Positions 24,007 through 24,171 of a stretch of 64,000 bases of DNA are shown here, in pieces (position 1 is the stretch's first letter; the number at the start of each line of letters is the position of its first letter). This DNA comes from Terripilifer ovatus. GTDB taxonomy: Bacteria; Pseudomonadota; Alphaproteobacteria; Rhizobiales; Beijerinckiaceae. The notes beneath the pieces were generated by a model. The model saw only the letters and a list, made by a program, of their open reading frames with translations, ran no database searches and was not told the DNA's origin. A program made the translations under genes and the position numbers. The stretch spans positions 1-64,000 of the forward strand of contig JARHVB010000086.1 of the NCBI GenBank assembly GCA_029222685.1. The letters are read 5' to 3'.

Positions 24007-24171
24007 AAGCCGCACCAGAAGATGCATCATCTGGTGCGGTTTCGGCGGAGAGATCGTCTCATCCCAGGTCGTTTCAGACCGTTCCTCAGCTTGATCTCTC
24101 CGCCGCTAGTTCATTCAGGCCGAACAGTCGCTTGAGCCGCAAAACGAGCTCGGTTGCGCAAGGAGGGCTGA
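24007..24171 (+). ncRNA. Candidate IS110 bridge RNA (target-binding and donor-binding loops)
   Basis: Three structures follow in order. (1) A stem-loop, CCGCACCAGA 24010-24019 with TCTGGTGCGG 24030-24039. (2) A 13-bp stem 24043-24055/24093-24105 enclosing an internal loop and an inner GGTC/GACC hairpin (67-70/77-80 of 24000s). Its left strand has CTCATCC (24058-24064) and its right strand GTTCCTCAG (24081-24089). (3) A hairpin 24115-24171 with ACAGTCGCT (24124-24132), inner GAGC/GCTC and CAAG (24159-24162). Loop 2 matches the REP target and loop 3 matches the element ends. This is the arrangement known for the IS621 bridge RNA. The folding was done by eye. Confidence 0.75.
24161..24166 (+). 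promoter_or_regulatory. Ribosome binding site of the IS110 transposase, inside the predicted RNA fold
   Basis: AGGAGG lies 7 bases before ATG 24174. It forms part of the outer stem of the last predicted hairpin (TCAG-CC near 24115-24121 pairing with GG-CTGA 24166-24171). Folding of the bridge RNA could therefore limit transposase translation; this is inference. Confidence 0.5.

What the first reader, a model, noticed from the sequence alone, without database searches (positions are those of the whole stretch)
24007..24171. IS110 leader reads as a complete bridge RNA with guides that match both target and donor
Seen: a 13-bp stem (24043-24055/24093-24105) encloses an internal loop. Its left strand carries CTCATCC, identical to the left half of the REP target, and its right strand carries GTTCCTCAG, the complement of CTGAGGAAC (the target right half is CTGAGGAGC, seven of nine matching). 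The next hairpin carries ACAGTCGCT (24124-24132), identical to the element's right end (25118-25126), and CAAG, the complement of the left end CTTG. Established: the IS621 bridge RNA has a 5' stem-loop, a target-binding loop and a donor-binding loop with this logic. Inference: this is a working bridge RNA aimed at a REP palindrome.
Basis: partly seen in the sequence, partly recalled or inferred. Interest (0 to 1): 0.88.

Follow-up and report, generated by a model that had tools for sequence, protein, structure and literature searches.

The report
IS110 bridge RNA aimed at repeats
A small jumping gene in a bacterium carries an RNA that reads as the address label for its landing site, a repeat scattered through the same genome; this is a clean new example of a mechanism described in 2024.

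Summary
Window 23997-25126 is an IS110-group element (311-aa recombinase, five catalytic residues aligned with IS621) with core CT. Its leader folds as a 5' stem-loop, a target loop and a donor loop. In the own genome 4 of 4 readable left flanks and 6 of 6 right flanks lie at one base of a REP-like repeat, GCCCTCATC-CT-GAGGAG (136 exact 15-mers; control 0). Corrections: the right target guide has 8 of 9 Watson-Crick pairs plus one G-U, and the right donor guide is the split TT..G.CAAG known from IS621. In 22 homologous leaders the stems covary (15 of 25 pairs with changes on both sides) and guides follow flanks: right guide 101 of 110 non-core matches against 49.5 with flanks dealt at random, left guide 98 of 132 against 70.4, 0 of 100,000 permutations reaching either. 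Three lineages each fit a repeat abundant at home and rare or absent in the other two genomes. No transcript or recombination was tested. It is a new member of a known kind: IS621-type bridge RNA, with REP insertion by IS110 elements in print by 2006.

The parts
23997..25126 (+). IS110-group element (from the base after the left core to the right core CT)
   Evidence: flank comparison of own-genome copies; transposase domains
23988..23994 (+). left target half CCTCATC (REP-like repeat)
23995..23996 (+). core dinucleotide CT, left junction
23997..24001 (+). right donor TGTAA (with the core: CTTGTAA)
24007..24042 (+). 5' stem-loop of the bridge RNA
   Evidence: fold of the single sequence; not recovered in the consensus fold
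24043..24055 (+). target-binding-loop stem, 5' strand
   Evidence: perfect pairing with 24093-24105; helix covaries in homologs
24057..24065 (+). left target guide TCTCATCCC (positions 2-8 identical to the target; position 1 wobble; position 9 mismatch)
24081..24089 (+). right target guide GTTCCTCAG (pairs with CTGAGGAGC: 8 Watson-Crick pairs and 1 G-U)
24090..24091 (+). candidate handshake guide of the target loop (CT)
   Evidence: by position after the right target guide; rule, bases
24093..24105 (+). target-binding-loop stem, 3' strand
24124..24132 (+). left donor guide ACAGTCGCT (identical to the right end)
24154..24162 (+). right donor guide TT-GC-G-CAAG
   Evidence: layout as in the IS621 structure
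24163..24164 (+). candidate handshake guide of the donor loop (GA), can pair with target TC at positions 6-7
24174..25109 (+). IS110 recombinase, 311 aa; D10, E54, D96, D99, S235
   Evidence: Pfam PF01548 and PF02371; IS621 and ISCro4 chains, E 5.4e-32 and 4.4e-32; residue numbers
25106..25111 (+). TTGACT, candidate -35 box of a promoter that would form only across the circular RE-LE junction (17 nt before TAAGTT)
25118..25124 (+). left donor ACAGTCG
25125..25126 (+). core CT, right junction
25127..25133 (+). right target half GAGGAGC (REP-like repeat)
25251..25265 (-). intact second repeat unit, inverted: CCTCATCCTGAGGAG
1..99 (+). right end of another copy of the same element, followed by the same repeat

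Best explanation
The leader of this IS110-group element encodes a bridge RNA of the IS621 kind. When the element is excised as a circle, the joined ends bring a -35 box (TTGACT) to 17 nt before a -10-like box, and about 170 nt of the left end are transcribed. The RNA binds the recombinase. Its first loop pairs with both strands of the repeat CCTCATC-CT-GAGGAGC, its second loop pairs with the element's own joined ends ACAGTCG-CT-TGTAA, and the recombinase exchanges strands at the CT cores. Shown here: the anatomy, the pairing, its covariation in homologs, and the single target base in the own genome. Inferred from IS621: circle, promoter use, RNA-protein complex, cleavage and strand exchange.
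For: Catalytic domains and residues. 4 of 4 readable left and 6 of 6 readable right flanks at the same base of a 136-copy repeat. Guides match target and donor. Stems covary: 15 of 25 pairs changed on both sides, 96.4% of cells paired against 87.0% shuffled (0 of 500 as high) and 40-53% when partners are slid by 1-3 columns. Target guides follow flanks in 22 leaders, 0 of 100,000 permutations as good. Where donor ends vary the donor guides mostly follow: RD position 14 A to T with guide T to A in 3 of 3 rows, RD position 11 G to T with guide C to A in 1 of 1, LD position 5 T to C with guide C in 2 of 2 (L074 and L075 are near relatives). TTGAC at the right end in 31 of 34 rows and TAA at spacing 17 in 27 of 34 (many rows are copies of one element). 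Repeats that fit each lineage's guides are abundant in its own genome: GAGGAG form 136 in G000 and 1 in G167; GAGGTG form 109 in G167 and 0 in G000; CGTCRTCCTGACGNA 30 in G722, 0 in G000 and 1 in G167.
Against: Left-guide position 9 (C) does not pair with the core T in the window copy, although the C32 copy has T there. Right-guide position 15 is a G-U wobble in all 6 readable right flanks and position 16 pairs in 3 of 6. In the homolog set the left guide is weak in some rows (1 of 6 in L075; 3 of 6 in L049, L065, L067, L073 and L076), and the right guide scores 3 of 5 in L012 and L076. L076 has a right end (G at LD position 5) that its guide does not match, and left-donor-guide position 9 is unpaired in 11 of 22 rows. 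Most homolog ends were placed with motifs modelled on the window's ends, so likeness of donor guide and donor end is partly built in; the target test is not affected in that way. The structure counted was derived from the same alignment. The 5' stem-loop is not in the consensus fold. No RNA or protein data.
Confidence: 0.95

Rival explanations
1. The leader is only a regulatory 5' region that folds to limit transposase translation, and the target is recognised by the protein.
For: The leader lies directly upstream of the gene. For ISPpu9, an element inserted in REPs, transposase expression is reported to be regulated by two small RNAs and the 5'-UTR structure (PMC8450116, title and start of abstract in the listing).
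Against: Guide bases follow the flanking DNA across homologs with the same kind of recombinase; a fold for translation control would not need that. It may still be a second role.
Confidence: 0.03
2. The matches are by-products: the loop resembles the repeat because the repeat is common, and the donor match is an ordinary internal repeat of the ends.
For: The repeat is very common in this genome (136 exact 15-mers), so a match to it is less surprising than to a unique site.
Against: Homologs with other flanks have matching loops at the same structural positions; the split right donor guide has the IS621 layout; all four motifs together occurred in 0 of 100,000 shuffled leaders.
Confidence: 0.01
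3. It was a functional bridge RNA but this copy is decaying (core mismatch at left-guide position 9), and other copies supply RNA and enzyme.
For: The C32 copy differs from the window leader at 24065 (C to T, which pairs with the core) and at 24067 (G to T).
Against: The window open reading frame is complete with the catalytic residues. Two further left ends (L006, L007) carry the window base at 24065 and L016 has the same base in another genome. L016, L046 and L047 match fully at left-guide positions 2-7 and also do not pair at position 9.
Confidence: 0.05

Closest known systems
IS621 (IS110 group, Escherichia coli), bridge RNA
   Same: DEDD plus Tnp domain recombinase; RNA in the left end before the gene; 5' stem-loop, target loop, donor loop; CT core; right donor guide of nine RNA bases over seven DNA bases with two bases flipped out and a G-T pair; insertion in REP elements (PMC11208160 and PMC11208158; compared)
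   Different: Target sequence; the right target guide pairs over at least 7 positions where IS621 uses 4 (longer ones in orthologues are reported); recombinase only distantly similar (phmmer E 5.4e-32)
ISRm19 (IS110 family, Sinorhizobium meliloti)
   Same: IS110 element of an alphaproteobacterium with 4 of 4 copies in REP sequences (PMC1525189, passages)
   Different: Not compared at sequence level here; described before bridge RNAs were known
ISEc21 (IS110 type) and IS1111-type seekRNA elements
   Same: RNA from the non-coding region carries matches to both target strands (PMC11187229, abstract and one section)
   Different: IS1111-type members usually carry the non-coding region downstream of the gene; here only 17 bases follow the stop codon

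Membership tests
IS110 group (IS621-like) of the IS110 family | DEDD RuvC-like domain (PF01548) and Tnp domain with serine (PF02371) | tested here: met
   Both over the curated cut-off; D10, E54, D96, D99, S235 align with IS621 D11, E60, D102, D105, S241 (the numbering of the 8wt6 chain is taken to run two ahead of the native one, an inference)
IS110 group (IS621-like) of the IS110 family | Long non-coding left end upstream of the gene, short right end | tested here: met
   177 bases before the ATG, 17 after the stop codon
IS110 group (IS621-like) of the IS110 family | Core dinucleotide shared by target and element ends | tested here: met
   CT at both junctions
IS621-type bridge RNA | Two stem-loops with internal loops, conserved by covariation | tested here: met
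   strongest in the target-loop stem (9 of 11 pairs changed on both sides)
IS621-type bridge RNA | 5' stem-loop before the two loops | tested here: inconclusive
   Seen in the single-sequence fold, not in the consensus fold
IS621-type bridge RNA | Target guides pair with opposite strands of the target and follow it across homologs | tested here: met
IS621-type bridge RNA | Donor guides pair with the element's own ends | tested here: met
   covariation evidence is thin because the ends hardly vary and were placed by motif
IS621-type bridge RNA | Handshake guides pair with the non-cognate DNA after strand exchange | tested here: inconclusive
   3 of 4 post-exchange and 0 of 4 pre-exchange pairs in the window, by hand from the bases and the rule; in homologs the first handshake base of each loop never varies (22 of 22), so it carries little information
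IS621-type bridge RNA | Promoter re-formed at the RE-LE junction of the circle | tested here: inconclusive
   TTGAC in 31 of 34 rows, TAA at 17 nt in 27 of 34; the -10 resemblance is weak
IS621-type bridge RNA | RNA is expressed, binds the recombinase and directs recombination | not testable with these tools
   needs RNA-seq and an in vitro assay
IS1111 group | Non-coding region downstream of the gene | tested here: not met
   17 bases follow the stop codon; the leader is upstream
IS1111 group | Subterminal inverted repeats | not tested
   not examined
REP elements with a RAYT gene | Y1_Tnp (PF01797) gene in the same genome | tested here: not met
   0 matches in the own genome; 5 of 14 control genomes ring. 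The repeats are called REP-like for their number, palindromy and pairing only

The most novel reading that the evidence does not exclude
In this lineage of IS110 elements the target guide evolves in step with the repeat family of each host genome: related elements carry guides for whichever REP-like repeat is abundant at home, which gives them many harmless landing sites, and guide alleles still vary inside one genome (24065 C or T).
Probability: 0.45. Interest if true: 0.4.

Novelty: new member of a known kind. Interest (0 to 1): 0.22.

Why it matters
It adds a well-resolved IS110 element with a natural target guide, pairing over at least seven positions on the right side, to a kind of programmable recombinase proposed for genome design. 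It also gives a small natural series (three lineages, three repeat families) in which guide and host repeat can be compared. It does not change the understanding of the mechanism, which was published in 2024.

Tried and rejected
Rfam with permissive limits over 22000-27000 gave 7 matches with E up to 1, none over its gathering score. The best (MIR847, 25132-25246) lies on the inverted repeat pair of the target; another (sX15, minus strand, 24043-24105, 26.7 bits against 55) lies on the target-loop stem; both were set aside as hairpin resemblance. A RAYT gene as the source of the repeats was sought and not found. The consensus fold did not recover the 5' stem-loop; I did not realign to rescue it. 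Handshake positions were examined and judged uninformative across homologs. No covariance model and no structure prediction was made.

Rows not used in the 22-leader counts: L014 (internal deletion joins leader to gene; its right flank does not match its right guide, its left flank matches six bases of its left guide, by eye), L011 (leader cut at the contig end; by eye its right guide matches 7 of 7), L015, L050 and L054 (no leader on the contig), L051 (41% identity, left end not located), L017-L030 (24-37% identity), L033 (38-base match), G038 loci L032, L035, L037, L039, L040 (right ends only), G044 loci L031, L034, L036, L042, L044 (right ends) and L038, L041, L043 (partial leaders; by eye the right guide matches 7 of 7, and the left guide has one or two mismatches at positions 2-7 against the 3 left flanks), own-genome partial copies L002-L009 and the chance match L010, and further copies of elements already in the set (L052, L055-L057, L059-L062, L068, L072, L078). 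Among the last, G722 left flanks have G at target position 5 in 3 of 5 and A in 2 of 5, where the guide has G. Of 1,220 plasmid records with a match, 60 were listed and 16 read: the first 17 rows without H16.

Full report
What was checked. The window is G000:C85:1-64000 of a 7.2-Mb genome in 86 contigs. The element reads 23997-25126. Its gene (24174-25109, 311 aa) matches Pfam DEDD_Tnp_IS110 and Transposase_20 above their cut-offs and the ISCro4 and IS621 chains of the Protein Data Bank (E 4.4e-32 and 5.4e-32). D10, E54, D96, D99 and S235 align with the IS621 residues D11, E60, D102, D105 and S241 (residue list from PMC11208158, passages; positions). The element itself is rare: at the DNA level 4 of 51 same-genus genomes match, the own one included and the other three over short stretches only; by protein at E up to 1e-60, 7 of 297 genomes of the order match, and at E up to 1e-80, 3 of 385 of the class, own genome included in both.

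Insertion site. One search lists 10 matches in the own genome (40 of 64 first-look candidates were scored, so copies may be missing). One is the window copy, one a 24-base chance match, and eight are partial copies cut by contig ends. They give 4 left flanks, all ending in CCCTCATCC, and 6 right flanks, all beginning with GAGGAG, so there are at least six copies and the empty site is GCCCTCATC-CT-GAGGAG. The 15-mer CCTCATCCTGAGGAG occurs 67 times forward and 69 times reverse in the genome, the pattern read backwards 0 times. Among the places listed there (not the whole set) many form inverted pairs about 100-200 bases apart, as at the target here (25127-25265). I call these repeats REP-like; no RAYT gene was found and no curated REP family was tested.

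The RNA. The leader 24004-24173 folds at -77 kcal/mol (z -5.43). Inside it lie the left target guide 24057-24065 and the right target guide 24081-24089. The right guide pairs with CTGAGGAGC at eight positions and by G-U at one; the left guide is identical at positions 2-8, pairs by wobble at 1 and does not pair at 9. In the second hairpin the left donor guide is identical to the right end over nine bases, and the right donor guide TT-GC-G-CAAG fits CTTGTAA in the split way described for IS621, where two bases are flipped out and a G-T pair follows (PMC11208158, passages; PMC11208160, passages). Candidate handshake guides form 3 of 4 pairs with the non-cognate DNA and 0 of 4 with the cognate DNA (by hand, bases).

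Homologs. Ends were placed by flank comparison in multi-copy sets and otherwise by motifs modelled on the window's ends, not by empty sites. The consensus fold has 25 pairs, 15 with a change on both sides in at least one sequence; 96.4% of cells pair, against 87.0% in shuffles (0 of 500 as high) and 40-53% when partners are slid. The tool warns that related sequences, and a structure derived from the same alignment, favour such figures. The target-loop stem has 9 of 11 pairs with changes on both sides.

Guide and target. With guide columns fixed by the alignment (the left guide allowed one base of slip either way, in observed and permuted sets alike), the right guide matches its own flank at 101 of 110 non-core positions against a mean of 49.5 when flanks are dealt at random, and the left guide at 98 of 132 against 70.4; no permutation of 100,000 reaches either value. 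With one row per guide class (18 rows) the figures are 81 of 90 against 39.4 and 84 of 108 against 58.0, again 0 of 100,000. Weak rows are listed under evidence against. Where the donor ends vary the donor guides mostly follow: TGTAT for TGTAA with AT for TT in L073, L074 and L075; CTTT for CTTG with AAAG for CAAG in L012; ACAGCCG in L074 and L075; L076 is an exception.

Repeats and guides by genome (seven genomes searched). The GAGGAG form of the repeat occurs 136 times in the own genome, 25 times in same-genus G044, once in G167 and not in G038, G278, G156 or G722. The GAGGTG form, which fits the guide of the G167 elements, occurs 109 times in G167, 4 times in G278 and not in the other five. 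CGTCRTCCTGACGNA, a pattern of the G722 insertion sites, occurs 30 times in G722, not in G000 or G156, and once or twice in each of the other four. L016, with 67% identical protein, has the same target guides as the window element and sits at the same repeat sequence.

Within the genome. The leader of the C32 copy (L003) differs from the window's at 24065 (C to T) and 24067 (G to T); the first change makes left-guide position 9 pair with the core. The L006 and L007 left ends have the window base. The window insertion lies at the end of a dTDP-4-dehydrorhamnose 3,5-epimerase gene: without the element the frame stops at TGA inside the repeat; with it one leucine is added and the frame stops at TAA from the element's left end (gene). 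The insertion therefore looks harmless.

Expression. In the circular form TTGACT of the right end would stand 17 nt before TAAGTT of the left end. TTGAC is found in 31 of 34 rows and TAA at that distance in 27 of 34, many rows being copies of one element. Durrant et al. report a promoter re-formed across the RE-LE junction and an RNA of about 177 nt for IS621 (PMC11208160, passages). Nothing here shows use of the promoter.

Place among known systems. Bridge RNAs were described for IS621 and predicted in 85.7% of IS110-group elements (PMC11208160, sections 6 and 12). REP insertion is reported for IS621 and for several IS110 elements, including ISRm19 of Sinorhizobium meliloti, 4 of 4 copies (PMC1525189, passages). 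Siddiquee et al. describe the same kind of RNA as seekRNA (PMC11187229, abstract and one section). The paper searches listed no title about this element, but none was by its sequence or a name. The verdict is a new member of a known kind, with high confidence in the reading and modest interest.

Noticed in passing
window 1-99: The window opens with the right end of another copy of the same element, followed by the same repeat; the contig starts there, so the assembly breaks at copies of this element.
   Followed up: yes
window 23441-24001: The stop codon of a dTDP-4-dehydrorhamnose 3,5-epimerase gene lies in the repeat; the insertion replaces TGA by TAA one codon later, leaving the protein one residue longer.
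   Followed up: yes
L003 (G000:C32), positions matching window 24065 and 24067: A second leader allele in the same genome differs inside and next to the left target guide.
   Followed up: partly
L002 against window 24589-25126: Seven base differences between two copies, six of them C/T changes, so these copies are not from one very recent burst.
   Followed up: no
own genome, places listed: The repeat often occurs as inverted doublets about 100-200 bases apart, yet no RAYT gene was found.
   Followed up: partly
L014: A Roseicella copy has leader and gene joined by an internal deletion and a right flank that does not match its guide.
   Followed up: no
L066, L067, L070: Rhizobium and Shinella elements have TT in place of CT at the left junction, as if the target core were TT.
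   Followed up: no
22-leader set: Target position 7 is C in 19 of 22 and the first donor-loop handshake base is G in 22 of 22, which may limit which sites can be targeted.
   Followed up: no
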